Of a stretch of DNA of 32,536 nucleotides, positions 100-15,273 are shown piece after piece. The stretch spans positions 1-32,536 of the forward strand of contig CANCJV010000044.1 in NCBI GenBank assembly GCA_947378425.1, written 5' to 3'. Under the pieces are notes generated by a model. That model saw nothing but the letters and a program-made list of their open reading frames with translations, was not told the DNA's origin and searched no databases. How positions within the stretch are numbered: the stretch's first letter is position 1; each line of letters opens with the position of its first letter. The position numbers and the translations under genes are program-made. Origin of the DNA: Synechococcaceae cyanobacterium (lineage in GTDB: Bacteria > Cyanobacteriota > Cyanobacteriia > PCC-6307 > Cyanobiaceae).

Positions 100-119
100 T
101 CACCCCAACAGCTCTCATA

Positions 120-144
120 AGGACTGGAGCAACAAGGGGGGTCA
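120..144 (+). repeat. Probable right terminal inverted repeat of the IS3-type element
   Basis: The segment ends in GGGGGGTCA, whose reverse complement starts TGACCCCCC, a common IS3-family end with terminal TG...CA. It sits about 45 bp after the transposase stop codon, the usual place for a right end. The partner left end is outside the window, so the pairing cannot be checked. Confidence 0.4.
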
Positions 145-489
145 CGTCATCAGGACTTCGCAAGAATGAAGGAATGGGCCAAGAGGAACTACTGGTCGCC
201 GACGATCGGATTGAGCTGCCACTGCAGGGTTAGCCCGGCAGCCGCTCTTGGCGGAGATCCCGGGGCTGATCTCCTGTTTCTCCAGCCGGATGCGGTCGTT
301 GTGATCCCGGACGTGAATGCTTTTGGCTGAGCAGTGATCGCAGGGCACTCTCCAGGGCTGGTCAGCTCGGGGGCTCTACCCAGGAGTTCGCCCGACTGAA
401 GAGTGAATCGTCGGGGATGTTGAGTGGGGTAAGGCCAACAGGTCCCTGGGCAGCCTGATGTCCATACTGGCCGCTCAGGCCATCGATGC

Positions 490-990
490 TCAGCTGTTCG
501 GTTTGCATTGCCGCACCTGTTTGCGCTGCACCCCGGCCAGAGCGTCACGGCACGCCGCCAACAGGAGGCTGTCGAACATCCCCGTGACCGCTTCATCCGC
601 AGGCAGCGCCAACAGATGTGGCACCAGAGCAGTTGCCACATCTGGCCTGTCAGGATCTCGGCCTGCTGCTGTCACGCAGAGCAGTGCCCGGGTTCTAAGC
701 CGCAGGCTCTCGAACGCGTGACGGAGATTCACCTGCCTCAGCAAACACTTCACAGGCTTGAGTGGATGCAGCCGAGGCATGATCACCACGAATTGACTGC
801 GCAGGAACAAGACCAGCAGGTCATCACGCAGGTGCACCATGAGCGGATGGCCGATTCGCTGGGAGGGCGCGTTGTAGGTGAGCGAGCTCACCTCGATCGT
901 GCGCGTCGTCGTCGCAGTGCTGCTGGGCAAACAGAAAGCTGTCCTCGGCAGTACCCTCAACCCTTCAACCCTGACCAGTCCGCGAGGCAC
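490..990 (-). pseudogene. Decayed IS21-family transposase (IstA C-terminal region)
   Basis: A 166-residue minus-strand frame contains SSLTYNAPSQRIGHPLMVHL and RQVNLRHAFESLRLRTRALL, resembling the C-terminal part of IS21-type IstA (Y-S-V-P-S-R-L-I-G-H followed by a YRHVIESLRRKPRAF-like block). The N-terminal helix-turn-helix and the DDE core are missing. After about residue 160 similarity is lost and reading continues only in shifted frames to about position 190. No IstB partner is recognisable. This is a truncated, frameshifted remnant. Family assignment rests on motif memory, not alignment. Confidence 0.6.
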
Positions 991-1114
991 TACCTAGCTG
1001 GCTGCTACTTTGTCTTGAAAAGGCGCTTGGAAGTGGTAGGAATGAGCCAACGCAATGCCAACGCAGTTTGCTATTGCATGCTTTGCCTGGTACACAGCTT
1101 GCTGGACGCAGAGA

Positions 1115-1134
1115 TTGATGGGTGATCAAGATCT
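1115..1134. repeat. Dispersed repeat, copy 1
   Basis: TTGATGGGTGATCAAGATCT matches 21250-21269 at 19 of 20 bases, and both copies are followed within about 60 bp by CTTCAACTG. It lies just upstream of the decayed istA. It could be the end of a mobile element or a small repeat family. Confidence 0.45.
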
Positions 1135-1277
1135 CTGTTTAGAGAATGGATTCTGAGCGGAGTCACGGGCGGGACTTCAACTGGATAGCGCGATCCATGC
1201 AGAAACCAGAGAACTGCGGCTAGGATAAGGACGTCACCAACGAGATCGTGCAGGTGGGAACCGCAGGTATCCGTAAG

Positions 1278-1302
1278 GGTGAACTATCCCATGATATTCA
1301 CC
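1278..1302. repeat. Small hairpin with one bulged base
   Basis: GGTGAACTATC (1278-1288) pairs with GATATTCACC (1293-1302), leaving a CCAT loop and one bulged C, so ten base pairs form. There is no T-run, so it is not a typical terminator, and no adjacent gene explains it. Confidence 0.4.
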
Positions 1303-1472
1303 TGATTTGCAGGAACCAGTGAGATTTTCGGTGCGATTCATGCTTTGCTTACGTCTTTAATCCCATCTCAGAAGCCAAGCTCTGAACGGATCAGAACCGC
1401 TGCAGCAACCAACATGGTGCTGGCATCTGGATCTGAAACACTTATCGCCGTGAGGAGGATGATTGAGACCGG

Positions 1473-1498
1473 GATCATGGGGCCATGGGCCCATGATC
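1473..1498. repeat. 26-bp near-perfect palindrome
   Basis: The arm GATCATGGG (1473-1481) is the exact reverse complement of CCCATGATC (1490-1498), and the centre is also self-complementary apart from one mismatched pair. It could be a dimeric protein-binding site or a relic of a mobile-element end. No gene starts within 350 bp. Confidence 0.5.
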
Positions 1499-1811
1499 TA
1501 GATGATGTAGCTGTAAAATGGCGTTCGATCGATTCACACTGGGATTCTGGTGTTGACCCATGACATCAGACTGATTCTGGCGATGGCAGGGCGACATCCA
1601 GCCCCAGGAATGATTGCAAACGTTGAATCGGCCCTACATGGATCTAGGTGTGACTGCATTGGAACGATTCAATCCTGTGCTGGTGACAACCAGAATTTAG
1701 CTGGTTTGATTCGACACGATGGGACGGGCAATACCCAAACCGCTTGGCTGAGCAAGCAACCTGACATGCACCAAGCGTCCGATCGTTACTCGCAGTCATC
1801 AAAAGTGATGT

Positions 1812-1817
1812 TATAGT
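1812..1817 (+). promoter_or_regulatory. Possible -10 box for the FkbM gene
   Basis: TATAGT lies about 36 bp before the ATG at 1854, in an AT-rich patch just ahead of the first island gene. No good -35 box is seen at standard spacing, so this is a weak call. Confidence 0.25.
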
Positions 1818-1853
1818 ATTTTCAGCAATAGCCTAGCGTGCTCTGAGACAGAC

Positions 1854-3920
1854 ATGATCGACGCCCGAACCCTTGACCTATCGCCTACCCATCTCATCCC
1901 TGGCCAAGACTACTTCGTGGCGCTCAATAATATTGATCGTAGATTGGCGATCGTAGCGCCGGATTTGTTCGCTGCCAATACCTACTATATCGAAGCCGGC
2001 GCCAATGACGGGATCAAGCAGTCAAATACTTTCTATCTCGAAAAGATTTGTGGAGCAAAGGGGCTCTTGGTAGAACCCGCTTTGAACCTCTATGAAAATC
2101 TAATTAAAAACCGTAGCCAGGACAACAGCTTTCGTTGCGGTGCTCTTGTTTCAAGAAGTTTCTCCTCAGAGCTTGTCAAGCTGATTTACTGTGATCTTAT
2201 GACTCTTCCACTTGGGACAGGAGAGGGACCTGAAAAGGGCTACGAATACAAGCATTTTAAGGATGGTTCTTCGGCCTTGCCAGATGCCATGAAAATCCCA
2301 ATTATTTTCGGTGCCCAACCACTTTGCCTGTCAGATGTGCTTTTGGAAGTGGGCGCGCCAAAAATGATTGACTTGCTATGTCTTGATGTTGAGGGCTCGG
2401 AACTTGGGGTGCTTCAAGGTATTGACTTTTCGCTTCATTCTTTTCGCTATATCCTAATTGAGACCTGGAATATCACGGAGGTCGCCAATGCCCTTGAAGC
2501 CTATGGCTATGAATCAACTCACCAAATAACCGACAATGATTTCCTATTTCAGCGAAAGTCAACAGGACATGGAGGGGCAAGTTCCTTGCCAAAGCCGAAT
2601 CAAGTTCAAGATTTGCTCTCACAAGTTCCAGAAATAGCCCCACAACAAATTGTGACTTCCGGTGAAGCACAGATAAAGCATGGCTCGTCAGTCTGCTTTG
2701 TGAATCGACTTGTCTCTACCTTGTCAGAAGACCCTGAGCTAGCAGAGCCAAAATCAGACGGCTCACTACGATCAATGTATTACCATAAATTAGGCAGTGT
2801 TGGCCGGCCGCCAATCGACAATGAACTGATCAATAGTAGTTACTTTAGCTCTATTCAGATTCCCGCCAAGTTGAAATATGCGTTATTGCGTGAGTCGTTG
2901 AGTAGCAGTGCCAAGAGTGGGCAAGGCTTGGAAGTTAATATTTATGGCCTTTATCATGATATGAATCCAGTACGGCGGCGACGCGTCATCCTCGACAGTC
3001 TGTTTGCAAAATTATCTCCCAGCATTGCCATCAGCGAGATAAAAACCATCAATCCTTTATCCTTCGATGATCTTCCAAGGAATGAAAATTCATTAAATAT
3101 TATCTTTACTAATCAATATGCACTTTTCGTAGAAGAAGCGGTTGCTGCGTTGATTAACTATCTCCAAGGCAATCCAGCAAGTTTATTGGTCACATATTTC
3201 ACCGACTCTCATCATATGCTTAATCATACTGCATATTTTGCCGCAATCTCGGATTTCCTTTTTCTTGGCCATCCGTCAAATGTATCACTTGCGACGTGTA
3301 TTAATCCACATGTTCATCTATTGAGGAACTCGCTGACGCAGTGGGATCCCCTAGATGCCGTAGCCCAACTTCACGAAGAAAGCAATGAGCCAAGAAGACA
3401 GGAGCTTTTTGGTTGGCATAATGAATACCCGCAATTCCCTCGGCGGAACAATTTTTTAAATAGCTTGCATTCATCAGGATTCCCAGAAGCGCGCTTGCTT
3501 GCACCCGAAGAATACCAAAAGTTTGCAAAATTTACCCCCATTGATAAGTTAAAACATTGGCTCCAATATGACCACTCACTAGTTGTGCCCACACTCTATG
3601 ATTTGCCGATTCGCTTGTTTGACGCCCTAAGCTCTGGGCAAAATGTCCTTGTGCCGTTTGGCTGTACACATCTAGACCGAATCATCCCAAGCGCCCAGCA
3701 ATTGGACTTGGGAATATTTCGGTATGTAGACGAGTCAATAGAATCTGTCCAAGTTGCTTACAATAAAGCCCTCTCAAAAATACCGAGCAACTATGAACGC
3801 TTGGAACGCTCCCTGTATGTTGCAAACAATCATTCTATCGCTCGTATTGCTGAAGAGTCAATTGCACAAGTAGCATGGCGTATTGCCCATGAGCTTGACG
3901 AACTAGGGTCATTATGCTAG
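1854..3920 (+). CDS. FkbM-family methyltransferase fused to a glycosyltransferase-like region
   Basis: This 688-residue protein has two parts. Residues about 44-235 form an FkbM-type SAM-dependent methyltransferase: YYIEAGANDG (44-53) is motif I, VEP near 73 is the acidic loop, and LDVEGSELGVLQGI (177-190) is the FkbM signature, followed by IETW. FkbM enzymes usually O-methylate sugars or secondary metabolites. A linker of about 100 residues follows. Residues about 340-680 look like a GT-B-type glycosyltransferase C-terminus: LPIRLFDALSSGQNVLVPFG (584-603) resembles the donor-site helix where an R/E-x-x-x-A-L-x-x-G block is common. No donor can be named. The ATG at 1854 has only a weak GAGA upstream. 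Base composition is lower in GC than the core genes. The role in decorating a surface glycan is inferred from neighbours. Confidence 0.75.
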   Translation: MIDARTLDLSPTHLIPGQDYFVALNNIDRRLAIVAPDLFAANTYYIEAGANDGIKQSNTFYLEKICGAKGLLVEPALNLYENLIKNRSQDNSFRCGALVSRSFSSELVKLIYCDLMTLPLGTGEGPEKGYEYKHFKDGSSALPDAMKIPIIFGAQPLCLSDVLLEVGAPKMIDLLCLDVEGSELGVLQGIDFSLHSFRYILIETWNITEVANALEAYGYESTHQITDNDFLFQRKSTGHGGASSLPKPNQVQDLLSQVPEIAPQQIVTSGEAQIKHGSSVCFVNRLVSTLSEDPELAEPKSDGSLRSMYYHKLGSVGRPPIDNELINSSYFSSIQIPAKLKYALLRESLSSSAKSGQGLEVNIYGLYHDMNPVRRRRVILDSLFAKLSPSIAISEIKTINPLSFDDLPRNENSLNIIFTNQYALFVEEAVAALINYLQGNPASLLVTYFTDSHHMLNHTAYFAAISDFLFLGHPSNVSLATCINPHVHLLRNSLTQWDPLDAVAQLHEESNEPRRQELFGWHNEYPQFPRRNNFLNSLHSSGFPEARLLAPEEYQKFAKFTPIDKLKHWLQYDHSLVVPTLYDLPIRLFDALSSGQNVLVPFGCTHLDRIIPSAQQLDLGIFRYVDESIESVQVAYNKALSKIPSNYERLERSLYVANNHSIARIAEESIAQVAWRIAHELDELGSLC

Positions 3921-4046
3921 GTGTTCTTGGTGTTCAGCCCCATGATTTAATTGCAGGCAGTTAATCGAGGTAGGCGATTTCTGCTGCCTTGCAGGAAAAG
4001 ATTGTCAATTCCTTCAATTAAGCCCTTTAATTTACACATTGAACTC

Positions 4047-5021
4047 ATGGTGCATCCTCATCGCCAAACGGTCTCAGACTGGCTTCGTTGCATCCCTAAG
4101 GTTGACGGCATTTATCGTGCATCTGCTGATCGACGATTCGCCCATGATGAGACATCCTATGATGAACAGTATCAATCACCTGATCTTGATATCACTAGGG
4201 CAGACTTTATCACTGACCTATTGGCACCAACATTCGCGGTCAATCCCCCAGCTCATATTCTTGAGATTGCATCAGGCCCCGGAACATTGACCTTGGGCCT
4301 GCGTAACCGTTTTCCTCGGGCTCATATTTTTGCAACCGATGCATCTTCAATGTTTTTAAACATTATGAAAAGGAAAGTAGATCAGTTGGGATTTTCATCG
4401 GAAGAGTCACTTTCATTGATCCAGTTGTCTGATACAGAATTTCATCTTCTTCCAAGGGTCTTTGATCTCATCTGTATTCGTTCTGGTCTACATCATTTTG
4501 TTGATTGGCCCCAGGTGCTCTCAACCTTAAGCACATGCTTGAATGCCAATGGATTAATTTGTATGCTCGAGCCACGGGCAGACTTTTTTATCGTATCATC
4601 AATTCTGCTTCAACTCATGCTAGAGAGACTCGAGAAGATCTCTCCAGCACAAAGTGCCCAGGCAGCAGAACACGTCAAATTATTCCAAGAGACTTCAAAA
4701 TTTTATATTCGCAATGACATTTCAAAAGAAGGTGCAGAGGATAAATATGCTTTTTTCCTCGAAGATCTCCAGCGTGAAGCCACGAAAAATAATCTAAATA
4801 TAGCGGCACTTGGCGCCGAATTCGCGTGCGGATTCAGCTTGGAATTCTTGAACTACCTCAAATATTGCATGTCTTTTCCGGCTTCACTGGTCAAGAGTGC
4901 TTCGGAGATTTTGGACGAAGAGCTAACAATGCTTGAACAGTGTTACGGCTCACGAGCAACCTTCTATGGTGCAGCTGAATGGTATGCACTTAGCAGCATG
5001 CCTGTCAGAACATCCAGATAA
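4047..5021 (+). CDS. Class I SAM-dependent methyltransferase
   Basis: The 324-residue protein shows Rossmann motif I ILEIASGPGT (71-80), an acidic residue after beta 2 in FATDAS (96-101), and the later FDLICIRSGLHHFVDWPQVL block of small-molecule methyltransferases. The acceptor is unknown; the C-terminal half (about 200-324) is helical and unassigned. ATG 4047 is preferred over an in-frame TTG at 3951, because the extra 32 residues are basic and carry no motif. The gene follows the FkbM fusion by 126 bp on the same strand and probably shares its transcript. Its stop codon abuts the stop of the convergent acetyltransferase with no spacer. Modification of a glycan or lipid intermediate is inferred only from context. 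Confidence 0.75.
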   Translation: MVHPHRQTVSDWLRCIPKVDGIYRASADRRFAHDETSYDEQYQSPDLDITRADFITDLLAPTFAVNPPAHILEIASGPGTLTLGLRNRFPRAHIFATDASSMFLNIMKRKVDQLGFSSEESLSLIQLSDTEFHLLPRVFDLICIRSGLHHFVDWPQVLSTLSTCLNANGLICMLEPRADFFIVSSILLQLMLERLEKISPAQSAQAAEHVKLFQETSKFYIRNDISKEGAEDKYAFFLEDLQREATKNNLNIAALGAEFACGFSLEFLNYLKYCMSFPASLVKSASEILDEELTMLEQCYGSRATFYGAAEWYALSSMPVRTSR

Positions 5022-5906
5022 TCATAGTGTTGGAATATTTGCTACCGTCGGGGTTGCATGGGTTAGTGCTTGCCTTGAAATGGCTAGTTCCTCTTCGCAG
5101 AGTTGCATGCACATCTTGAGATGATTGGTATCGTAGTTATATGGATGTGATTGCCAGCTGATATTGTGTCTCATCACTTTTGCGGGAATTCCTGCAAGAA
5201 GGCTTTTGTTCGGGCAGTTTTTTGTTGCTACCGCTTTTGCTGCCAATACTGACCCGTATCCAATGGTGACGCCTTTGAGGATAACTGCATCTTCGCAAAT
5301 CCAGTTATAGCCCTCGATCGCTATTCCCTTGGGACTGTTAATGATTTCATTGCGATCGAGGTCGATGACTGCATGATCATCATGGCTTCTGACAATGGTC
5401 CCCTTGGCGATAGCACAGCACTGGCCCAGGGCGATAGGGCCATTCGAGGCACTTTGGAAGCGTGAACCCGTCGCAGATATGCCATTCGCGACTACGATTA
5501 TTGGGGCAAGAGAAGTTATCGGAGGAACATGCGCGCCCACAATACCAAGGTCGAATTCACATTGGTAGAGGTTTACATCTTCACCTAGAAGCAGTATGCC
5601 GTTGGGTTCATTGCAGCGGACAACAATGGAATTTGCTCCGTCGACAAATCTGTCGTTAACATGAAACCTATTTTTGTCAATGAAAATGCTTGTGCCAGTG
5701 ATGCAGGGGCCGCAAATGTAAAGCCGATCAATGACGTGGTCGGGTCGGTTGTTTTTTTGATAAACTAGCATTGCCCCATTAAAATGCTCGGATACAAGTT
5801 CAATGCTCTGTAAAAAAATATCTTCCCTGTGAACTACATTGCGTAATGCTGCCGTGATGCGTGTTATCCTATCGGCGAGATTTTTAGTGTGTTCTAGTTT
5901 ATTCAT
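5022..5906 (-). CDS. Left-handed beta-helix (hexapeptide) acetyltransferase
   Basis: The 294-residue protein carries hexapeptide-repeat features of the NeuD/WbbJ/CysE O-acetyltransferase group in its C-terminal half: IALGQCCAIAKGTIVRSHDDHAVIDLD (about 158-184, where H175 or H178 is the likely catalytic histidine), then ICEDAVILKGVTIGYGSVLA (203-222) and the closing LLAGIPAKVMR (236-246). This fold transfers acetyl from acetyl-CoA to a sugar hydroxyl or amine. The first 155 residues are less typical and may be an acceptor or oligomerisation domain. The gene runs opposite to the two upstream genes and its stop directly abuts theirs. Acetylation of the island's glycan is inference. Confidence 0.75.
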   Translation of the reverse strand: MNKLEHTKNLADRITRITAALRNVVHREDIFLQSIELVSEHFNGAMLVYQKNNRPDHVIDRLYICGPCITGTSIFIDKNRFHVNDRFVDGANSIVVRCNEPNGILLLGEDVNLYQCEFDLGIVGAHVPPITSLAPIIVVANGISATGSRFQSASNGPIALGQCCAIAKGTIVRSHDDHAVIDLDRNEIINSPKGIAIEGYNWICEDAVILKGVTIGYGSVLAAKAVATKNCPNKSLLAGIPAKVMRHNISWQSHPYNYDTNHLKMCMQLCEEELAISRQALTHATPTVANIPTL

Positions 5907-6468
5907 TTCAGGGAGACGACGTCAATCCTGCGCCGATATTATAGGTGCCAATCTCGGCACTTCTGCCATCATGGCGCGATTTGCTTCAGACTTGAGTGTC
6001 CTTTCTCTATGGTGTTGCTCCCCATCAGGCAATTGGACCTGCTGGGTCTGAGGTCAGGCTCCTCATCTGGTCAAGTCGGCTCCACTATTGACGGATCAAT
6101 TGGGTCCATTCAGCCCTTGTGGGGTGGGCTTAGAGGCCATAGGAAGACTCACTCCGTCGCTGGTTTCCGCCAGTCCCAGCAAACTGAGCCTCCCACGGAT
6201 GCCCTCAATGTATGCAGCCATGTCCTAGGAGTGCTGGTGTTCAGATTTCCGTCGCACCGAGTGGGGCACTTTTCATAGCTGAGTAACGTGTTGCACCCAT
6301 TGACTTATTCTCTCAGCTGCCGCTGCGGCTTACGCCGATGATCGTGAAGCTAGCTGTCCAGCCAGTTGTCGATGGCCCACTCCAGCACCGGCATTGCCTG
6401 CAAGCTTGAGGTGATGACGCTGTCTTGGGCCAGTTGTTGTCTGCTCGTCTGTAGTGTTCTCACCGGCA
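5907..6468. other. Gene-free stretch upstream of acetyltransferase
   Basis: No coding frame with recognisable motifs was found on either strand. The stretch should hold the acetyltransferase promoter, on the minus strand next to 5907. Otherwise it looks like decayed DNA. Confidence 0.5.
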
Positions 6469-6850
6469 TTAGGTCAGCCATGCATGAATCATCATGCATT
6501 CTATGTGGCGGTAATGCTCAATTGTAATTGGTATGTTGATGTTGTGCTGTGCGAGATCTTGAAAAAAAGGGCAGTTGGCATGCGGGCTTCCTACTGCACC
6601 AGCAGACGTGCAGCTCCATACCCTCAAGCAACTTCCGCAGTGCCTTGATTTCGTTGCCTGCATCAGTGGCGATGGTGTCTGGGCGATGGCGACACCCAGA
6701 GAATGGGAATGGAGCCAGACCTAGGCGATACAACACTGTGCCGGAAATTATTTCAGTCTAAGCACTTCTCAATGTTGTTGATTGCAGGCGAATACGTCAA
6801 GCCCCTCTGCTAAGCGTGCTGGGCTGCCATCCAGTCACGCAGCAGGGTTT
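6469..6850 (-). pseudogene. Decayed ISAs1-like transposase remnant
   Basis: Minus-strand fragments in different frames recall ISAs1/H-repeat transposases: LLRDWMAAQ near 6819-6850 (end of the N-terminal domain), then NEIKALRKLLEGMEL near 6600-6660, matching the N-E-I-x-A-x-x-x-L-L-x-x-L-x-L block in front of the second catalytic Asp. The fragments are in the right order but need several frameshifts, and stop codons interrupt them. No terminal repeats were found. Family assignment is tentative. Confidence 0.4.
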
Positions 6851-7372
6851 TAAAGGCATATTCAGATGGGCAAGCAGAGACTGAAGCTGGAATCCGACGG
6901 CGACATGTCGAACCGGTGCTCCACATCTGATTGAGCATCTGGCGATGATGGCTATCAATCAGCTTCACGCTGACCAGCGCGCCCTAGCCGGTGATGATCG
7001 TCACTAACCGCATCCATCTTTGAGGAAAACGGATGTCATGAGACAAGCCACACTCGCGCAGCGTTGACCGAAAGCCGATCACATCATGGGCTATGGCTGG
7101 ATCGGCTGGGATGGTTGACAAGGGAAGCTAGTGTGTCTGTTGCAGGACATGCATATTGGGCAGGGTGCCGAGAGCTTGGCACCCCCCATCTCAATGGGAG
7201 ATGGGGGGTAGCTTGGATGTGGATGCGCAATATTTCCAGAGGAGGGGCATAGCTCCTGTCAATGATACGTCTCATCCCCTATCAAGAATGGGTTTGCAAG
7301 TCTCCTATACTGTCATTGAAGCCTGTCAAGAGCGGCCTGCCAGCCTGGGCGGAGCCTTGAGCGCCCCATTCC
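6851..7372. other. Gene-free stretch with a strong hairpin
   Basis: No convincing gene. It contains a 12-bp perfect inverted repeat at 7181-7209. The rest may be the N-terminal part of the ISAs1-like remnant, decayed beyond recognition. The sulfotransferase promoter should lie in the last 100 bp. Confidence 0.5.
7181..7209. repeat. Perfect 12-bp stem hairpin
   Basis: ACCCCCCATCTC (7181-7192) pairs perfectly with GAGATGGGGGGT (7198-7209) across a 5-nt loop. AGCTTGG occurs directly before (7173-7179) and just after (7210-7216), so the hairpin is flanked by a 7-bp direct repeat. No T-run follows on either strand. It could be a small insertion unit with a target duplication, or an mRNA element. 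Confidence 0.6.
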
Positions 7373-8212
7373 ATGCAAATTAATCAATTATTCAGGGCAT
7401 CAAAAATTGAACCAAGCCCGTTGCGGATCATTCATCACTGGGCCTGCAGCGGAGGAACGCTGATCAGCAAATGTATTGCAGCCAATCCGGGAATCATTTT
7501 CCTCAGCGAAGTTCACCCTGACGCATATTTACGACTCGTAGAGCCAGCTCTGGCAAATTATCTGCCTACAGATATTTGTCACCAGCTCTCGGCTGTTCAC
7601 AATGGACGTGACCCAGTGCTTGCCCGGGCTGCATTTTCTGGTGCCATCAGGGGCTTGGCCAATAAATGTGATCAGCTTGGTCTTTGTCTTGTATTGCGGT
7701 CTCATGACCACATTGATTTCTTTGTAGGCTCCCTCCCGAAGCAATCTTTTACAATTTCAGATTGTTTTAGGAATGAGTTTAAGCTTTTGGAATTCCTTAC
7801 AGTCAGGCATCCATTGGATTGCTGGTTGGGGCTGGTTGAGTCCAATTGGGCGCCGCAAATTAGCTTTGCCAGCGTTGACTCCTTCTGCTCTCGCTGTCAA
7901 ATGATGCTCAATGCAAGTCACGGATTTTCATCCCTGAAGTATGAGCTGTTTGTTGCCGATCCCGTGCCGTCATTGCAGGCTATATGCCACAGCCTGAACC
8001 TTCGTTTTGATGTGACCGCTTTGAATCAGTTTAACAACGTCGTTATGTCCGGCAACAGTGGTCGCCAAGGAATTGACATTGCACCACGGCCTAGACGAAC
8101 GGTCAGCAATGATCTTGAAAAAGAGCTCTCAAGATCAACGCATTATGAGCAAATCTGTGATGCTATGGGGTACGAGTCTAGTCCAAATGCAGCATTCCCT
8201 TATCTGTTATGA
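7373..8212 (+). CDS. Sulfotransferase-family protein
   Basis: The 279-residue protein starts with IIHHWACSGGTLISKCI (19-35), a variant of the P-loop-like 5'-phosphosulfate-binding loop that contacts PAPS in sulfotransferases. LEFLTVRHPLDCWLGLVES (139-157) matches the 3'-phosphate-binding R-x-P-x-D block. The loop has S-G-G-T in place of the common S-G-T-T/S. A carbohydrate acceptor is likely from the neighbours but cannot be read from sequence. The ATG at 7373 has no strong Shine-Dalgarno. A small coiled-coil gene follows after 30 bp and probably shares the transcript. Confidence 0.72.
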   Translation: MQINQLFRASKIEPSPLRIIHHWACSGGTLISKCIAANPGIIFLSEVHPDAYLRLVEPALANYLPTDICHQLSAVHNGRDPVLARAAFSGAIRGLANKCDQLGLCLVLRSHDHIDFFVGSLPKQSFTISDCFRNEFKLLEFLTVRHPLDCWLGLVESNWAPQISFASVDSFCSRCQMMLNASHGFSSLKYELFVADPVPSLQAICHSLNLRFDVTALNQFNNVVMSGNSGRQGIDIAPRPRRTVSNDLEKELSRSTHYEQICDAMGYESSPNAAFPYLL

Positions 8213-8242
8213 TACGTTGATGTTTGGTATCCGATTTTAACC

Positions 8243-8530
8243 ATGAAACAGGGAGCTGGCTTCAGCGATGCTGAACGATGTCGTGAACTTGAGGATCAAC
8301 TTGTGCGCGCAGAGCAACGCGCATTTGATCGTTTGCAGCAGATTTCGTCTACTTGTGAGGAAGTTCAGGGTCAGTATTCTGATCTTCTCAATTCCTACCA
8401 TGAATTGCATGCCGAATGTCAGTCGGCAATGTCAAAAATAAATGACCTTACGAATCAATGCGCTAGTCGGCAAGCGCTGCTCGATGAAACGCTTGAGCGC
8501 CTAATCGACCTGCAGGCAAAGCTATCTTGA
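8243..8530 (+). CDS. Small coiled-coil protein
   Basis: The 95-residue protein is almost wholly heptad-patterned and rich in Glu, Gln, Leu, Arg and Ala, for example CRELEDQLVRAEQRAFDRLQ (residues 13-32), with no signal peptide, membrane segment or catalytic motif. It follows the sulfotransferase by 30 bp on the same strand. Its final 9 bp overlap the end of the convergent coiled-coil gene. It could be a scaffold for the sulfotransferase, or a coiled-coil C-terminus detached from it. Function is unknown. Confidence 0.6.
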   Translation: MKQGAGFSDAERCRELEDQLVRAEQRAFDRLQQISSTCEEVQGQYSDLLNSYHELHAECQSAMSKINDLTNQCASRQALLDETLERLIDLQAKLS

Positions 8531-9919
8531 GACTTCTTGGTTTGGGCGAGACTCAAGCATATTGATCAACGCAACTACTTCTGCGGCAATAATTTCAATC
8601 ATACCTTTTTGCAGTGCATCGGATGCGCTGATATTATTTCGTTCTGACATCAGCGATTCTCGTTCGGCTAATAGTCGGCTTTGTTCGCTCAGCAATTTGT
8701 CCCGCTCACAAACAATAGACTTCAACTGTTGCTCAACCATGGCGAGCTTATTTGCTTGGGCTTTGTACCGATCAGCCAGTCCTTCCTGCTGAATGCGTGA
8801 CTTCTCAAGTTCCATTCGCAACGTTTGCCGATCAGAGATTAGTGATCCATGCTCATCGATCAGTTCGTTCCTTTCCCCGATCAATTCGTCCCGTTCAGAA
8901 ACAGTTGACTCCAGCTGTTGCTCAGCTGTGGCGCACTGATGCTCATGGGCACGGATCAGTTCAGCCTGTTCTTCTTGCTGAATGTGCAACTTTGCTAGTT
9001 CCATTCGCATTGCATTACATTCAGAGACAAGAGACTCATGCTTAAGGATTAGTTGATCATGTTGACTGCTCAATTCCCCTCGTTCTGCGGCCATGGCATC
9101 AAGTTGTTGCTGAGTGGTGGCGGCTTGATGTTTTTGAGCACGTAGAAAATCGGCCTGTTGTGCGCGTAGCTGTTCCAGCTCCACTGCGATAGCATCTCGT
9201 TCCGCGATCACCAGCTTGATGTTGGAGTTTAGGTGTATGGTTTCATTTAGCAAGTGCAGGTTCTGAGATTCAATGTAGGCAATCTGATCCTGGCTCCAGA
9301 TGATTGCCGAATCGAATGCATCGCCCTGCTCGTCGTACTCCTCGGGCTGATGCAATGTCGCGGAAAGTAATTCAGATATTTCCTTGATTTTCTCAACATG
9401 TAATGCTGATGGCCTGGTGCCGGGATGCCAGCGGATCTCTGCAAACTTTTCGATAATTTCTGTTGCTCCCTTCAGGATTGGAGCAGGATCGCGACCGTAG
9501 AGCCAGAGCTGACCACCACCTGCATCCACGTGTGCCTTTAATGTGGGATGACCATTTGCTAAGCCTTGGATCAGCTTGTCAAGACTGACTGTCTTGCATG
9601 ACTCCTCGCGCACGATGCGAAGATTGGGATAGATCGTTGACCAATCTGATGGCGTATTGAGACCATCAAAGCGATGGTCGTTATAGGAATGCCAGACCCC
9701 TTCGCCCTTGGATTCAGCCAAGCGATCCGGACACAACCAGAGCTGGTGCCGACTATACTCAGCGAGTTTATCGGTCAGTTCCGCAACCAGCTCCGGCACC
9801 TGGGGGAGAAGGATCAGGGCATGGTGAGTATTGATCTGATCCATGAGGGTATCGATTGGGGCGGACCCTACGATCACCCGCCATGGGACGGGTTGCGCCG
9901 ATTTCAGGCTGTATTCCAT
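8522..9919 (-). CDS. Coiled-coil protein with degenerate FkbM-like head and 63-residue repeats
   Basis: ATG 9919 gives 465 residues. The frame stays open to 10252, but that N-terminal extension is proline/glycine-rich and antisense to the divergent gene. Residues about 1-165 resemble a worn FkbM methyltransferase domain: VSLDKLI (111-117) precedes HVDAGGGQLWLYGRDPAPIL where active enzymes have an L-D-V/I-E-G-x-E block, so the usual acidic motif is altered. From about residue 230 the protein is a long coiled coil with tandem repeats of exactly 63 residues (nine heptads), starting at the QQL triplets at 271, 334 and 397. The third is partial. A short helical tail closes it. No membrane segment. 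It may be a scaffold or pseudo-enzyme; the role is unknown. Confidence 0.65.
   Translation of the reverse strand: MEYSLKSAQPVPWRVIVGSAPIDTLMDQINTHHALILLPQVPELVAELTDKLAEYSRHQLWLCPDRLAESKGEGVWHSYNDHRFDGLNTPSDWSTIYPNLRIVREESCKTVSLDKLIQGLANGHPTLKAHVDAGGGQLWLYGRDPAPILKGATEIIEKFAEIRWHPGTRPSALHVEKIKEISELLSATLHQPEEYDEQGDAFDSAIIWSQDQIAYIESQNLHLLNETIHLNSNIKLVIAERDAIAVELEQLRAQQADFLRAQKHQAATTQQQLDAMAAERGELSSQHDQLILKHESLVSECNAMRMELAKLHIQQEEQAELIRAHEHQCATAEQQLESTVSERDELIGERNELIDEHGSLISDRQTLRMELEKSRIQQEGLADRYKAQANKLAMVEQQLKSIVCERDKLLSEQSRLLAERESLMSERNNISASDALQKGMIEIIAAEVVALINMLESRPNQEVSR
8636..9109 (-). repeat. In-frame 189-bp tandem repeats encoding coiled coil
   Basis: The repeat units begin at codons near 9109, 8920 and 8731, a spacing of exactly 189 bp (63 codons). 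Shared positions include QQL at the start, ER near 9-10, then L(R)MEL about 34-38 and IQQE about 43-46. Two units are complete and one is partial. Nucleotide identity is only moderate, so the duplication is not very recent or has diverged under coiled-coil constraint. Confidence 0.65.
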
Positions 9920-9994
9920 GGCCGAGTCAGTCGCGCTGCGGGGGAGTTCTGGTGCGATCCTAGTTTTAACGTCTGCATCCAACGTCAGCGATCC

Positions 9995-10906
9995 ATGGGA
10001 ATGTACCTCCTCTTCCGTTCGGCTGGGTCGTCCTGGCCTGAAGGCCTTCAACCCGCAGTCGATGCGCCCAGCTCCGCCAGGGAGCTGGGCGACCTGAGGC
10101 TTGAGGATCACGTGCTGTATGTTCTCGGCTACGCCAGCCCCTTCTCCTGCCTGTGGGACTTCGTCGGTCGTCATGGGGCCTCCAATCCCAGCCAAGAACT
10201 TGAAGGTTGGCGGGATTGTTGTGAGGCCATGCTCCAGCTGAAACGGAAGCACCCCTCGTCCTGCCGGTTGGTCAATTTAGACGCGTTGAGCGGAACCGGT
10301 TTGAGTGCTCTACGGACTGAGCTGGGGTTGGAGCCTGTGGAGCCAGGGCCTGATCGTTCACCTGATCTTAGTTATTCTAAGGAGGCTGACCCTATTCTTC
10401 GCTTTGCAATGGCTGAACGAAAGGATCTTCTTGATCTTTTCGCAGATCTGGAACTCTGTGCAGATCTCTACGGCCGTCAGGTCACTCTCCCCCCTGAGAC
10501 CCCTGCACTGAAATCTCTTGATCGAGCAGCTGTGTTGTTCGAAGTATGGTGCCGTGGTGAGAGGCTGAAGCGGAGGCAGATTGATGGTGTTAATGAACTG
10601 ACCGAGTTGCGTGCCCTTGCGCAAGGCCAACAAACACAGGTTCAGGACCTTGAAGAAGAAAGGCATCTGCTGATGCTTCAACTCCAGCAACTTCAGGAGG
10701 AGTTGCTTTCAACGTTTCAGAGACTGCAGACTTGTTCCTTGGAGCTAAAAGCTGCCGAAGCATCGAATGAGGAGCTGTGCCAACGAATGGCGTCAATTCG
10801 CGAAGAATGCAACTATTATCTCAGCAAGAGCAGGCCCCTCCCCGATCTTGATCAGTTGCGTATCCCTATGTTGATGCAGGGGCTAAAGTCTCATTTGTGT
10901 AAATGA
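9995..10906 (+). CDS. Coiled-coil protein with sulfotransferase-like remnant head
   Basis: ATG 9995 gives 303 residues (ATG 10001 is equally possible). The frame is open from 9674, but that part is antisense to the divergent gene. Residues about 36-95 (LEDHVLYVLGYASP, then LEGWRDCCEAMLQLKRKHP and RLVNLDAL) resemble the middle of a sulfotransferase after its R-x-P block, but no PAPS-binding loop is present. Residues about 194-276 form a Gln/Glu/Leu-rich coiled coil. The gene is divergent from the other coiled-coil gene with about 75 bp between starts, so both may share a regulatory region. It precedes the sulfotransferase fusion by 75 bp. Function is unknown. Confidence 0.55.
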   Translation: MGMYLLFRSAGSSWPEGLQPAVDAPSSARELGDLRLEDHVLYVLGYASPFSCLWDFVGRHGASNPSQELEGWRDCCEAMLQLKRKHPSSCRLVNLDALSGTGLSALRTELGLEPVEPGPDRSPDLSYSKEADPILRFAMAERKDLLDLFADLELCADLYGRQVTLPPETPALKSLDRAAVLFEVWCRGERLKRRQIDGVNELTELRALAQGQQTQVQDLEEERHLLMLQLQQLQEELLSTFQRLQTCSLELKAAEASNEELCQRMASIREECNYYLSKSRPLPDLDQLRIPMLMQGLKSHLCK

Positions 10907-10981
10907 GATGGGCGCCCCTCTTTTTCTCCCGTTCATTTATTGCTACTTCTGCTGTGCTGTGTTCCGCTCGGGTTGAATGAC

Positions 10982-12700
10982 ATGGCGGAATCGAATCTGA
11001 TCTATCAGCGTTGCATTTCGGTCTTGGGAATGCATCGGAGTGGTACCAGTGTGTTGATGGGGAGTCTCCGGGATGCGGGGGTTCATCTCGGACAGGTTTT
11101 AGATCAACATTTTCCACTCAATCGCCGCGGGCTACAAGAGGCGCCAAGTGTACTGTATATGCATGAGCAACTCCTGAAGGACAATGGAGGTAGTTGGCAC
11201 CAACCACCATCCAAGGTTGTTTGGGGACAGTTTCATCATAGTATTCGCGATTTGTTCATTGAATCCAGGGCCTCTGAGCCAATCTGGGGTTTCAAGGACC
11301 CTCGCACACTGCTGACCCTGGAGGGCTGGCTTGATGTTATGCCGGAATTGGAATGCGTTGGAATATTTCGCCATCCCAGCGATGTGGCTTGCTCGCTTCG
11401 TGAAAGGAATGGTTTTAATGTGGAATTGGGTCTACGGCTGTGGGAACACTACAATCGTCGCTTGCTGATGTTCTGCAAGCAACATCACTTTCCAGTTATT
11501 GAATTTCATTCGGATCCCGGGGTCGTCCGAGGGGGCTTGTCTGCAATCTTGCAGAGTCTGGGCTTGTGTGATGCATCAATTGGTTCTGCTCATGCTTTTT
11601 ATGCGCCTTCGGGCCCGCGGGAGCGGCAGCCTATGCTTGGGCTGCCATCCCATATTGTTGATCTCTATCACGAGCTTCGGCAACTTGCCTCTCAATATCA
11701 AAGCCTGCCCCTCTCCAACAGTGCTGGGCCTGATGTGATTGATGCGCCGCAGATTCTCCATTCGCTTCAGCCCCTTTCGATACGGCTTTTCCCACCGGGT
11801 CAAGGGGCAAGTGGTTATCGAATCACTGGTCTTGCGAAGCGATGCGACTGGGTTGTTTTAAGTGATTCTAATCAGCCCGATTTTTCTCTGATCAGACTTC
11901 GGCAATGTGACACGCCGAGACACGTTTTTCTTTCACTGCGTTCCCCATTTGTAGCTCTGACCCGTTTCCAGCAAGAGGTTCTCCCTCTGATCTCAGGTGC
12001 TTTCACACTGGTCACGGGCTCCGAGGACTGCACCATCCCCCACCAAGTTGATCGTCGCTGGCGGCCATTCACGGCAGAGGAGCGTCAAGGCATTCAATCC
12101 TTGTTGGAGGATTCAAGATTAATAAGTTGGTGGGCCGAGAATCTCGACAGTCTCCACCATCCAAAACTTCGTCCCTTGCCTACTGGTATGCTTCCCGATG
12201 TTGGCGAGATCCACCGTTATACCAAGGTCCCGATGGTCTTAGGACTCTCTCGGCGCCCTTTGAGGATGCTGTGCGCTCATCGCATCCGTGAGGGGCCCCA
12301 ATGGGATGTGCGTCGTCATGTCAGTGATATTTGCCGTAAGCATTTCCAGCCCTGGTGCACTTTGCTCGAGCATGAGGTTGCTGAACGGGAGCTTCTCCAG
12401 CGGATGCGCCATCACTCCTTCGTTATCTGTGCGGAGGGGGGAGGATTTGATCCCTCGCCCAAAGCTTGGCAGGCCATCCTGCAGGGTGCGATCCCTGTCA
12501 TTAGGTCCTCGGCATTGGACGAGGCCTATCGACAGTTGCCGGTGGCTTTCGTTTCAGAGTGGAGTCCCACGTCGCTAGCTCCGTCTCAACTTAAGGAATG
12601 GTTGGCTTCATTGTCGCCTTATTATGAACTAGCTGAGAAACGGCAAGTAGTTCTGTCCAGGCTTGGTATGGATTATTGGTGGAACCAAATAGTCGGTTGA
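10982..12700 (+). CDS. Sulfotransferase fused to exostosin-like glycosyltransferase region
   Basis: The 572-residue protein begins with VLGMHRSGTSVL (14-25), the 5'-phosphosulfate-binding loop, and has IWGFKDPRTL (101-110) and GIFRHPSDVACSLRER (127-142), the 3'-phosphate-binding R-x-P-x-D block, so the first about 200 residues are a PAPS sulfotransferase. Residues about 290-572 resemble an exostosin/GT47-type glycosyltransferase. The clearest block is FVICAEGGGFDPSPKAWQAI then LQGAIPVIRSS and LPVAFVSEW (480-526), equivalent to the donor-binding segment where a large G-x-G-x-D is followed by a W/R-x-x-E/Q-A-L-x-x-G-x-I-P-V run. ATG 10982 is preferred to TTG 10940, which would add 14 hydrophobic residues. 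One protein could both add and sulfate a sugar; acceptor unknown. Confidence 0.72.
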   Translation: MAESNLIYQRCISVLGMHRSGTSVLMGSLRDAGVHLGQVLDQHFPLNRRGLQEAPSVLYMHEQLLKDNGGSWHQPPSKVVWGQFHHSIRDLFIESRASEPIWGFKDPRTLLTLEGWLDVMPELECVGIFRHPSDVACSLRERNGFNVELGLRLWEHYNRRLLMFCKQHHFPVIEFHSDPGVVRGGLSAILQSLGLCDASIGSAHAFYAPSGPRERQPMLGLPSHIVDLYHELRQLASQYQSLPLSNSAGPDVIDAPQILHSLQPLSIRLFPPGQGASGYRITGLAKRCDWVVLSDSNQPDFSLIRLRQCDTPRHVFLSLRSPFVALTRFQQEVLPLISGAFTLVTGSEDCTIPHQVDRRWRPFTAEERQGIQSLLEDSRLISWWAENLDSLHHPKLRPLPTGMLPDVGEIHRYTKVPMVLGLSRRPLRMLCAHRIREGPQWDVRRHVSDICRKHFQPWCTLLEHEVAERELLQRMRHHSFVICAEGGGFDPSPKAWQAILQGAIPVIRSSALDEAYRQLPVAFVSEWSPTSLAPSQLKEWLASLSPYYELAEKRQVVLSRLGMDYWWNQIVG

Positions 12701-12777
12701 TCTATCCATTCGTTCATCTTGTCGATTGAGCTAAGCTTCTTGCGCTCGTGCCCTCCGTGCGTGTGCCACTGAGACAA

Positions 12778-13746
12778 ATGGAGAATTCACGTCAGGAGAC
12801 CTTGTCGATTTTAATGCCGTGTCTGGACGCCATTCGCTATCTCGACGAGGCCATCAGCAGTGTTCTGCGCGAAACGGCTGTCTTGGAGCTGGTTGTTTCT
12901 GACGGTGGCTCGACAGACGGGAGTATTGAATGTCTGCAAAACTGGCAGATCAGAGATCAACGGGTAAGGCTGGTTTCTCGTTGTGATCATGGATTAGGGG
13001 AGGGTCTCAACTCTGCCTTCGTTCATGCACGTGGAACGATCCTTGGCTGGCTGAATGCTGATGACCTCTATGTTTCGGGTGCTCCAGATCGGGCACTGGA
13101 AAGCCTGAGGATGCATCCTGAATGGTTGATGGTCTATGGGGAGGGGGAGCACATCGATTCCAGTGGCATTCCCAATAATCCATACCCGACCCGACGACCT
13201 TCCGTGGGCTTGCAGGGCTTCCGCGATTACTGTTTCATCTGCCAGCCAACCGTGTTTTGGCGTCGAAGTATGGGCATCATGTTGGGTCCTTTTTCAACAA
13301 AACTACGCACTGCCATTGATCTTGATTACTGGATGCGCGCGTTCTCTTCCTTTCCGGATCGAATTGGACATGTTCCCCAGCTCCAGGCCCAGACTCGCAT
13401 CCATCCCCACACCATTTCCGTCAACCAGCTGGACCAGGCCGTGCTGGAGGTGACCGGTCTCCAGCACCAGTGGTTCAGTGATGCCAGCACCCACATCCTG
13501 GAACGGCATCTGCGCGACCTCCTGAACAACCCACCATTGATCACCCATGGCAAGGCTGGTTCATGCCATGCGCAGGAGCTGCTGCAGCGTGCAGAGTCCT
13601 TCGTGGCTCACTCCAAACTTCAGGCGCTCAGGAGTGCCCTGCAGGAGCTAATCTTGCCCCATGCTCAAAACCACCCTATCTGCCATCTGGATGCTCAGCG
13701 GCGTCCTGATGATCATCAGCGTTCTGCTGCACAGCCCCAAGGGTGA
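12778..13746 (+). CDS. Family 2 glycosyltransferase
   Basis: The 322-residue protein has the GT-A fold signs of GT2 enzymes: LSILMPCLDAIRYLDEAISS (9-28), VVSDGGSTDGS (39-49) for nucleotide-sugar binding, and GWLNADDLY (90-98) carrying the D-x-D-type metal site. CFICQPTVFWRRSM (about 153-166) matches the acceptor region. No membrane segments, so it is cytosolic. The start could also be GTG 12748. The last 86 nt overlap secG in another frame, so the C-terminal tail of about 28 residues is encoded by secG sequence and is unlikely to be original. Donor and acceptor unknown; likely part of the island's glycan assembly. Confidence 0.82.
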   Translation: MENSRQETLSILMPCLDAIRYLDEAISSVLRETAVLELVVSDGGSTDGSIECLQNWQIRDQRVRLVSRCDHGLGEGLNSAFVHARGTILGWLNADDLYVSGAPDRALESLRMHPEWLMVYGEGEHIDSSGIPNNPYPTRRPSVGLQGFRDYCFICQPTVFWRRSMGIMLGPFSTKLRTAIDLDYWMRAFSSFPDRIGHVPQLQAQTRIHPHTISVNQLDQAVLEVTGLQHQWFSDASTHILERHLRDLLNNPPLITHGKAGSCHAQELLQRAESFVAHSKLQALRSALQELILPHAQNHPICHLDAQRRPDDHQRSAAQPQG

Positions 13747-13891
13747 CGGCATGGGCGGCCTGGCCTCCAGCGGTGGCTCCATGTTCACCAGCGCCCGCAG
13801 CGCCGAGAACACCCTCAACCGCATCAGCTGGAGCCTCCTGGCCGTCTTTCTGGTGTTGGCCGTCATTCTCAGCGCCGGCTGGGTGAGCTGA
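13661..13891 (+). CDS. secG: Preprotein translocase subunit SecG
   Basis: The 76-residue protein has the SecG layout: an N-terminal transmembrane helix (about 4-24, SAIWMLSGVLMIISVLLHSP), the conserved loop PKGDGMGGLASSGGSMFTSA (25-44) and a second helix (about 53-73). SecG supports SecYE in protein export across the plasma or thylakoid membrane. Length is normal. Its first 86 nt overlap the preceding GT2 frame, which belongs to the lower-GC island, so secG is taken as the first core gene. Confidence 0.9.
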   Translation: MLKTTLSAIWMLSGVLMIISVLLHSPKGDGMGGLASSGGSMFTSARSAENTLNRISWSLLAVFLVLAVILSAGWVS

Positions 13892-13897
13892 GAGGCG

Positions 13898-14407
13898 ATG
13901 GTGCTCCATTCCAGACGCGACCTCATCGGCCAGTTGCTGCAACGCAGTCGTGGCCCCTTCGTTGCCTTGATCCCCTTTCTCAGGGTTGCTCGCTCGGATG
14001 CAGCTTCCAAGGCCCTTGATCCGGCCTGGGATCTCAGTGATGCTGAATGGAAAAAGCGGCTCAGTCCCGCCGCCTATTCGGTGCTGCGTCGTGAAGGTAC
14101 CGAGCGCCCCTTCTCCAGTCCTTTCAATCAGGAGCATCGCAGTGGCACGTTCGTCTGTGCCGGCTGCCGATTGCCTCTGTTCAGCTCCAAGGCCAAGTTC
14201 GACAGCGGTACCGGTTGGCCTAGCTTCTGGCAGCCCTTGACCAATGCCGTGGTCACCAAGGTGGATTTCAAACTGATCGTGCCGCGCAGCGAATACCACT
14301 GCCGCCGCTGCGGTGGTCACCAGGGGCATGTGTTCAACGATGGACCTCGTCCGACGGGCAAACGGTATTGCAATAACGGCGTGGCTCTTGCCTTTGTCCC
14401 AGGCTGA
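13898..14407 (+). CDS. msrB: Peptide-methionine (R)-S-oxide reductase MsrB
   Basis: The 169-residue protein reduces the R epimer of methionine sulfoxide in proteins. It shows the two zinc-binding pairs C87/C90 (CAGC) and C135/C138 (CRRC), the GTGWPSFW block (104-111), HQGHVFNDGPRPTGKRYCNN (141-160) and the catalytic Cys158. The first about 40 residues are an extension without motif and could be an overlong start; no signal peptide is clear. It begins 6 bp after secG and is probably cotranscribed. Confidence 0.92.
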   Translation: MVLHSRRDLIGQLLQRSRGPFVALIPFLRVARSDAASKALDPAWDLSDAEWKKRLSPAAYSVLRREGTERPFSSPFNQEHRSGTFVCAGCRLPLFSSKAKFDSGTGWPSFWQPLTNAVVTKVDFKLIVPRSEYHCRRCGGHQGHVFNDGPRPTGKRYCNNGVALAFVPG

Positions 14408-15265: not shown

Positions 15266-15273
15266 CTTCCCCA

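What the first reader, a model, noticed from the sequence alone, without database searches (positions are those of the whole stretch)
1854..13746. Island encoding a possible triple-decorated (methyl, acetyl, sulfate) surface glycan
Within 12 kb there are an FkbM methyltransferase fusion, a second methyltransferase, a hexapeptide acetyltransferase, two sulfotransferases, a GT2 enzyme and two glycosyltransferase-like fusion halves. Each motif is visible in the sequence; their combined role is inference. Sulfated extracellular polysaccharides are known in cyanobacteria, but no polymerase, flippase or Wzx/Wzy genes are visible here, so this may be a modification cassette for a glycan or glycoprotein made elsewhere.
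Basis: partly seen in the sequence, partly recalled or inferred. Interest (0 to 1): 0.7.

Follow-up and report, generated by a model that had tools for sequence, protein, structure and literature searches.

The report
Cyanobacterial secretion-linked surface sugar island
The cluster of sugar-decorating genes is real, but it appears to be one half of a larger island whose other half encodes a protein-export machine and its likely cargo, so the sugars are probably added to a secreted surface protein rather than to a free polysaccharide.

Summary
The genes are there. GT2, FkbM and the second methyltransferase pass Pfam cut-offs; the acetyltransferase resembles polysialic-acid O-acetyltransferases; one sulfotransferase is fused to a clear GT47 domain. 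Both sulfotransferases score below the Pfam cut-off and rest on relatives, motifs and convergent weak hits.

The interpretation needs enlarging. The window is a whole contig. In 32 of 35 genus-mates with both genes on one contig, gpmI and msrB lie within about 0.4 kb. Here and in five other genus-mates an island fills that spot. The gpmI side of this genome's island is on contig C25: an HlyB/HlyD-type secretion system, a PpiC protein, a TPR-heptosyltransferase-like enzyme, a GT4 and a Ser/Thr/Asn-rich protein whose distant relatives fold confidently as a beta-solenoid.

This secretion/glycosylation core recurs widely, often without the window's sulfotransferases; but where strong homologs of these occur, they lie 12-28 kb from the core marker in 4 of 4 and 4 of 4 other genomes. 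No PF01943-type Wzx was found in the genome.

Best reading: a type I secretion locus whose small beta-solenoid cargo is glycosylated, sulfated and, here, perhaps methylated and acetylated before export. Attachment to the cargo is inferred.

The parts
1..1853 (.). contig edge with decayed insertion-sequence-like remnants (1-149 and 328-902)
   Evidence: 98% match to the end of contig C52 beside an IS3-like reading frame; 68% match to C82
1854..3920 (+). FkbM methyltransferase fused to a GT4-like half (second half weak)
   Evidence: PF05050 44 bits; C-half homologs with Glyco_trans_1_2 E 0.062 and 6e-4
3951..5021 (+). SAM-dependent methyltransferase (start may be an inner ATG near 4047)
   Evidence: PF08242 E 2.2e-12
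5022..5906 (-). hexapeptide glycan O-acetyltransferase
   Evidence: phmmer to polysialic-acid O-acetyltransferase 3jqy, E 1.9e-17
7373..8212 (+). sulfotransferase STa
   Evidence: PF13469 E 0.014; profile's best PDB hits are sulfotransferases, E 0.004; one homolog at the cut-off; strong homologs linked to the secretion core in 4 of 4 other genus genomes
8243..8530 (+). small coiled-coil protein
   Evidence: one short 52% match (33 residues) next to STa in L156
8522..9919 (-). coiled-coil protein ccM with a conserved N-terminal part
   Evidence: homologs in G223 (31%) and G163 (27%) islands
9995..10906 (+). coiled-coil protein ccP
   Evidence: homologs in G220, G163, G216 and G223 islands
10940..12700 (+). 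ST47: sulfotransferase-GT47 fusion (likely start near 10982)
   Evidence: PF13469 E 0.006; GT47 8q8i/8avq E 7e-12; full-length 53% homolog in G223/L158
12748..13746 (+). GT2 glycosyltransferase at the secG end of the island; last ~28 codons overlap secG
   Evidence: PF00535 E 3.4e-15; 44-54% identical homologs in five other islands
13661..13891 (+). secG, chromosomal right border of the island
   Evidence: frame translation; order gpmI-secG-msrB in G226 and G218; gene names read from the sequence
13898..14407 (+). msrB, chromosomal flank
   Evidence: TIGR00357 above cut-off; 42 of 42 genus genomes have a match

Best explanation
The window holds the secG-side half of an island inserted between gpmI and secG. 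The island makes and exports a glycosylated surface protein. The gpmI-side half (contig C25) encodes a small RTX-like cargo, a TPR/heptosyltransferase-family enzyme, a GT4, a conserved protein of unknown function (p377), a PpiC-type protein and an HlyB/HlyD-type type I secretion system. Proposed route: the TPR/GT9-like enzyme starts glycans on Ser/Thr of the cargo in the cytosol; GT4, GT2 and GT47 enzymes extend them; the two sulfotransferases add sulfate; in this genome the methyltransferases and the O-acetyltransferase cap them; then the ABC/HlyD channel exports the finished protein, which folds at the surface. Shown: the genes, their domains, the shared insertion site, the recurring core and the sulfotransferase linkage. 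Inferred: contig order C25-C44, the cargo as acceptor, the order of steps and surface location.
For: Insertion site: of 35 genus genomes with both genes on one contig, 32 have gpmI-msrB gaps of about 0.4 kb or less; G163 has 34.5 kb, G223 26.6 kb, G187 3.4 kb (counted by hand). G163 carries its whole island on one contig. In the window's genome gpmI is on C25, followed by the cargo and secretion genes. Core genes PpiC, HlyD, p377, GT4 and TPR are all found around the exporter in 13 of the 18 best records, L156-L173; p377 matches 22 of 42 genus and 76 of 400 family genomes. Strong STa homologs (E<1e-70) lie 12-15 kb from p377 in 4 of 4 other genus genomes that have one; strong homologs of the ST47 N-half outside the genus (E<1e-50) lie 19-28 kb from p377 in 4 of 4. 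Cargo-like ORFs stand next to the TPR gene in 10 of 14 records with that gene; the model of one type (pLDDT 90) is a beta-solenoid closest to the calcium-dependent beta-helix 3p4g, probability 1.00, E 0.02. TPR C-half profile hits heptosyltransferase WaaC over 79 positions, E 5e-4. No PF01943 flippase in the genome, control 13 of 14.
Against: C25 and C44 are not joined in the assembly; other contigs could lie between. The core often occurs without the window's sulfotransferases: STa matched 3 and ST47 2 of the 60 records printed (10-kb flanks), and only 5 of 42 genus genomes have a strong STa against 22 with p377; G163's island has no STa. Three weak partial STa hits (G204, G208, G175) are on other contigs than p377. 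Two other PF13469 sulfotransferases of this genome lie on contigs C1 and C6. Cargo-like proteins were picked by composition and position; this genome's cargo and the modelled type are linked only by a profile match (E 6e-6, probability 85, about one third of the length), and the own-type profile finds no PDB match. No structural match of the cargo model reaches E 0.001. No direct evidence of glycosylation. Other flippase families, ABC-2 polysaccharide exporters and TolC were not searched.
Confidence: 0.58

Rival explanations
1. The window genes modify a lipopolysaccharide, capsule or sulfated exopolysaccharide, like the synechan (xss) cluster, and their position next to a secretion system only reflects a shared hotspot for surface genes.
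For: Sulfotransferase genes in cyanobacteria are reported mostly in Wzx/Wzy- or ABC-type polysaccharide clusters (PMC8205485, passages seen); the enzymes themselves do not tell a lipid-linked glycan from a protein-linked one; many genomes have the secretion core without these sulfotransferases.
Against: No PF01943 Wzx in the 98.6% complete genome; no flippase or polymerase family among the island proteins scanned; in G005 and G203 STa lies beside the type I core on other contigs than gpmI, so the pair is kept away from this hotspot.
Confidence: 0.25
2. One of the sulfotransferases (STa) sulfates tyrosines of the exported protein itself, as RaxST does for RaxX in a system that also uses type I secretion.
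For: The nine best matches of the weak STa model are sulfotransferases, eight of them tyrosylprotein sulfotransferases (model pLDDT 51, best E 0.009); Rax pairs a tyrosylprotein sulfotransferase with a type I exporter (PMC6637879, passages seen).
Against: The model is of low confidence and sequence profiles rank polyketide/olefin-synthase sulfotransferases first; this genome's exporter has no cysteine in its C39-like region, unlike a leader-cleaving exporter; the other sulfotransferase is fused to a sugar transferase.
Confidence: 0.08
3. The window genes are a chance pile-up of unrelated horizontally acquired genes at an insertion-sequence-rich contig edge.
For: Low GC, IS-like remnants and an IS3-type element; FkbM, second methyltransferase and acetyltransferase have no counterparts in the other islands compared.
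Against: GT2, the coiled-coil genes, STa and ST47 recur, in varying sets, in the islands of G163, G216, G220, G223 and G230 at the same spot.
Confidence: 0.1

Closest known systems
HlyB/HlyD type I secretion of RTX proteins
   Same: ABC exporter with a C39-like region that in this genome has no cysteine, adjacent HlyD adaptor, neighbouring small RTX-like protein
   Different: exporter carries an extra cyclic-nucleotide-binding domain; a PpiC-type protein and sugar enzymes are part of the recurring block; scores are below the curated NCBIfam cut-offs
Autotransporter heptosyltransferase systems (TibC/TibA, AAH/AIDA-I)
   Same: a heptosyltransferase-like enzyme encoded near a Ser/Thr-rich beta-solenoid export substrate
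   Different: type I instead of type V export; [quoted passage not shown] further sugar and sulfate enzymes are present
Synechan (xss) sulfated exopolysaccharide cluster of Synechocystis 6803
   Same: two sulfotransferases with several glycosyltransferases in a cyanobacterium
   Different: xss has Wzx, Wzy and a co-polymerase; none was found here in what was scanned
raxX-raxSTAB of Xanthomonas
   Same: sulfotransferase linked to type I secretion
   Different: Rax cargo is a small double-glycine-leader peptide cleaved by RaxB; here a larger RTX-like protein and no cysteine in the peptidase-like region of this genome's exporter

Membership tests
Type I secretion locus | HlyB-type ABC exporter next to HlyD-type adaptor | tested here: met
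   TIGR01846 E 7e-180 and TIGR01843 E 3e-50 on neighbouring genes, both below the curated cut-offs of those models; Pfam ABC_membrane, ABC_tran and HlyD_3 above cut-off
Type I secretion locus | encoded substrate with RTX-like beta-solenoid | tested here: inconclusive
   cargo type of other genomes models as a solenoid, best structural E 0.02; this genome's cargo linked by profile E 6e-6
Type I secretion locus | TolC-type outer-membrane channel | not tested
   no search made
Wzx/Wzy sulfated polysaccharide cluster | Wzx flippase and Wzy polymerase | tested here: not met
   PF01943 absent from the genome; none among the island proteins scanned; other flippase families and Wzy not searched genome-wide
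PAPS-dependent sulfotransferase (PF13469-like), STa | curated Pfam score or significant structural match | tested here: inconclusive
   own score below cut-off, not recovered at E 0.01 in the genome search, one homolog at cut-off, PDB profile E 0.004, weak model
PAPS-dependent sulfotransferase, ST47 N-half | curated Pfam score | tested here: not met
   17.3 bits and, in the G223 homolog, 20.7 bits against cut-off 27; a GMHRSGTS stretch resembles the PAPS-binding loop (motif recalled)
GT47 (ST47 C-half) | significant similarity to solved GT47 enzymes | tested here: met
   E 7e-12 to 8q8i, 8avq, 8asa
BAHT/TibC heptosyltransferases | iron-finger motif and dodecamer | not tested
   only distant heptosyltransferase similarity was tested: WaaC E 5e-4, no TibC among the hits
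Rax system | leader-cleaving C39 peptidase exporter | tested here: not met
   no cysteine in the C39-like region (about residues 280-410) of this genome's exporter or of those of G163 and G216; G223's has one, about 20 residues after where I would expect the catalytic one (position recalled)

The most novel reading that the evidence does not exclude
Picocyanobacteria carry a recurring, relocatable type I secretion system with built-in protein glycosylation and, in some lineages, sulfation: a TPR-heptosyltransferase-like enzyme primes a small RTX beta-solenoid in the cytosol, strain-specific enzymes elaborate and sulfate the sugar, and the glycoprotein is exported to coat the cell, giving a swappable surface identity seen by phages and grazers.
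Probability: 0.35. Interest if true: 0.78.

Novelty: new variant of a known kind. Interest (0 to 1): 0.55.

Why it matters
Sulfated surface material of cyanobacteria is usually discussed as free polysaccharide. A locus that ties sulfotransferases to type I secretion of a small RTX-like protein offers a different carrier, and since the decorating genes vary between close relatives at one chromosomal spot while the export core stays, it is a candidate for surface variation that phages and grazers would meet. It also names a specific protein to purify and test.

Tried and rejected
A first genome-contig scan with the ST47 protein found no relatives. Extending the contig leftward was impossible. 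The 8522-10252 ORF as a 576-aa protein and the 9674-10906 ORF as a 410-aa protein overlap antisense; I take inner starts (about 9919 and 9995) because ccM matches to relatives begin at residue 114 of the long ORF and because the two genes then no longer overlap; the ccP start is a guess. The STa structure model is poor (pLDDT 51), so its fold hits are only supportive. phmmer of the FkbM fusion against the PDB gave nothing useful, and the profile of the own-type cargo gave no PDB match. p377 has no informative PDB or Pfam match; its function is unknown. The 1.47-kb stretch 5907-7372 has no other copy in the genome and one short translated match to L166. Paper searches for such a locus turned up no description of it in the held library, which lacks most subscription journals; of the papers listed I looked only at passages of four and of PMC4358343. 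The linkage test of any match to the ST47 sulfotransferase part in single-contig genomes (4 of 8 within 30 kb, P 6e-5) used a distance chosen after seeing the data and is exploratory; G099, G131, G140 and G147 were the misses.
Full report
What was reported and what is there. All of these ORFs exist at the stated places. FkbM, the second methyltransferase and GT2 pass Pfam cut-offs. The acetyltransferase fails Pfam's cut-off but matches solved polysialic-acid O-acetyltransferases at E 1.9e-17 and 7e-14. The C-terminal half of 10940-12700 is a GT47 domain: a three-member profile finds 8q8i, 8avq and 8asa at E 7e-12. The C-terminal half of the FkbM fusion is only weakly sugar-transferase-like.

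Sulfotransferases. Neither passes the Pfam cut-off in the window (E 0.014 and 0.006), and a search of the genome with PF13469 at E 0.01 recovers the second but not the first (two others, on contigs C1 and C6, pass the cut-off). For STa (7373-8212), one relative reaches the cut-off, 27.1 against 27 bits (L172); a four-member profile puts two sulfotransferase structures first at E 0.004; and a low-confidence model (pLDDT 51) has sulfotransferases as its nine best structural hits, none better than E 0.009. For the N-half of 10940-12700, a full-length 53% homolog scores E 5.6e-4, still below cut-off. I take both as sulfotransferases, with STa the less certain.

The contig is a fragment of something larger. 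The window is all of contig C44 of an 84-contig genome, 98.6% complete. To find what belongs to its left, I used the chromosomal genes to its right. In relatives G226 and G218 the order is gpmI-secG-msrB (gpmI and secG named from their sequence). I compared positions of msrB and gpmI in 42 genus genomes. Seven could not be used (genes on different contigs or missing: G000, G216, G219, G220, G224, G227, G230). In the other 35, worked out by hand, the gap between the two matches is about 0.4 kb or less in 32, 3.4 kb in G187, 26.6 kb in G223 and 34.5 kb in G163. In the window the GT2 gene abuts secG. In G163 and G223 island genes fill the same spot on one contig; in G216 and G230 they are seen on both sides on two contigs each; in G220 only the secG side is seen. 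So this is an insertion site, and the window holds the secG side of an island.

The gpmI side in the window's own genome. gpmI is on contig C25 (the match has one stop inside). Beyond its 3' end, to the contig's end, lie: a 345-aa Ser/Thr/Asn/Gly-rich ORF; a TPR protein with a heptosyltransferase-like C-half; a GT4; a 377-aa protein of unknown function (p377); an HlyD adaptor; an HlyB-type ABC exporter with a cyclic-nucleotide-binding domain and a C39-like region without cysteine; a PpiC-type protein; and a GT4-GT2 fusion. G163 has the same order from gpmI to PpiC, with two cargo-like genes, and runs on to secG in one contig. That C25 and C44 are neighbours in this genome is therefore an inference from synteny.

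The core recurs. The comparison with the island proteins was printed for the first 60 of these 80. Of the 18 best (L156-L173), 13 show all of PpiC, HlyD, p377, GT4 and TPR around the exporter. L157, L164 and L171 are cut by contig ends, L162 lacks a GT4 hit and L168 a TPR hit. Their titles name Cyanobium, Synechococcus, Aphanothece and Microcystis elabens FACHB-917, besides uncultured cyanobacteria; L171 is labelled Gammaproteobacteria. p377, a marker of the core, matches 22 of 42 genus genomes (two of these, G148 and G229, only over short stretches) and 76 of 400 family genomes. In the smaller genomes G061, G186 and G058, outside the genus, the genes appear in a different order, and no PpiC was seen in G058.

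The window's sulfotransferases and the core. The core is often found without them: STa matched 3 and ST47 2 of the 60 printed records, which have at most 10 kb on each side. But the reverse link is strong. STa matched 8 of 42 genus genomes. Besides the window's own, four matches are strong (G216, G223, G005, G203) and all four lie 12-15 kb from p377 on the same contig; the three weak partial matches (G204, G208, G175) are on other contigs. The ST47 protein matched 64 of 201 family genomes, mostly weakly over the sulfotransferase part. The four strong matches to that part outside the genus (G006, G058, G186, G061; E<1e-50) lie 19-28 kb from p377. Six genus-mates match over the GT47 half; in G090 this is about 24 kb from p377, in the other five on another contig. 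Among eight single-contig genomes with any sulfotransferase-part match and p377, four are within 30 kb (P 6e-5; post hoc distance).

Shared and private genes. STa recurs in the islands of G216 and G223; ST47 in G223 in full and in G216 as its GT47 half; coiled-coil relatives in G163, G216, G220 and G223; and the GT2 in G163, G216, G220, G223 and G230. The GT2 is the last gene before secG in the window, G223 and G230; other genes follow it in G216 and G220, and in G163 it lies about 10 kb away. FkbM, the second methyltransferase and the acetyltransferase had no match in these other islands. In the family, the FkbM fusion was matched in 24 of 201 genomes, the window's own included, mostly over the methyltransferase domain (best-scoring 38% identity), with two weak matches to its C-half. 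These three are also the lowest in GC, 0.44-0.46. So the sulfation genes belong to a recurring system and the methyl/acetyl genes look like later, private additions.

The likely cargo. Next to the TPR gene, 10 of the 14 records that have it carry an ORF with at least 33% Ser+Thr+Asn+Gly and at most one cysteine; L160, L162, L166 and L167 do not, L166 being cut soon after. Six alignable ones (A7) gave a confident model (mean pLDDT 90) of a chain of short parallel strands, a beta-solenoid. Its four best structural matches are chains of 3p4g, a calcium-dependent beta-helical antifreeze domain, at probability 1.00 and E 0.02-0.04; RTX domains and serralysins follow at lower confidence. No match reaches E 0.001. 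The window genome's own cargo-like protein belongs to a different subgroup linked by profile comparison, E 6e-6 and probability 85 over about a third of its length. That 3p4g comes from a type I-secreted adhesin is recalled, not taken from a call.

Mechanism. I propose cytosolic glycosylation of the cargo followed by export. The TPR protein's C-half profile matches WaaC heptosyltransferase over 79 positions at E 5e-4, and 10 of 14 members match Glyco_transf_9 at E 0.01 or better. The nearest functional parallel is TibC/TibA, where a heptosyltransferase modifies serines of an autotransporter passenger; TibC itself is described as lacking sequence homology to known glycosyltransferases (PMC4358343, passages seen), so this is a likeness of function, not of family. 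Here export would be by type I instead. No Wzx of the PF01943 family was found in this genome, though the same search rings in 13 of 14 control genomes; other flippase families were not searched. Maeda and colleagues describe cyanobacterial sulfotransferase genes as mostly lying in Wzx/Wzy or ABC-type polysaccharide clusters (PMC8205485, passages seen), so the present context differs from that. The Rax system (PMC6637879, passages seen) shows that sulfation and type I export can be paired.

Verdict. Observation confirmed. Interpretation partly supported: a decoration cassette, yes; triple decoration of one glycan, untested; and the carrier is more likely an exported protein than a free polysaccharide. 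The system is best called a new variant of type I secretion loci, with attached glycosylation and, in some lineages, sulfation genes. Ten literature searches of the held open-access library listed no paper that I could see describing it; that library does not cover most subscription journals.

Noticed in passing
window 14727-16347: An IS3-type element sits between msrB and groEL, where relative G226 has a reading frame that looks like an ammonium transporter (named by eye); G224 has neither, so this gap is variable.
   Followed up: partly
window 5907-7372: A 1.47-kb stretch without a convincing gene inside the island; single copy in the genome, one short translated match to L166.
   Followed up: partly
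L150 (G187:C127:8000-17000): A 3.4-kb insertion between gpmI and msrB in G187, which has no p377 match; not identified.
   Followed up: no
L103 6372-9407 (G163:C14): Two 360-364 aa paralogous proteins (65% identical) with signal-peptide-like N-termini and PEP-CTERM-like tails (by eye) near secG in G163, with msrB fragments between them, as if the right border had been duplicated.
   Followed up: no
L170, L172: In these records the core has a dxr-like reading frame (by eye) on its cargo side instead of gpmI, so the core occupies at least two different chromosomal places.
   Followed up: partly
L102 10038-14159, L156 1389-5618: Giant proteins (1372-1409 aa) recur in the islands of G163, G216 and G223; the two scanned carry GT47 domains. 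No counterpart was seen in the window.
   Followed up: partly
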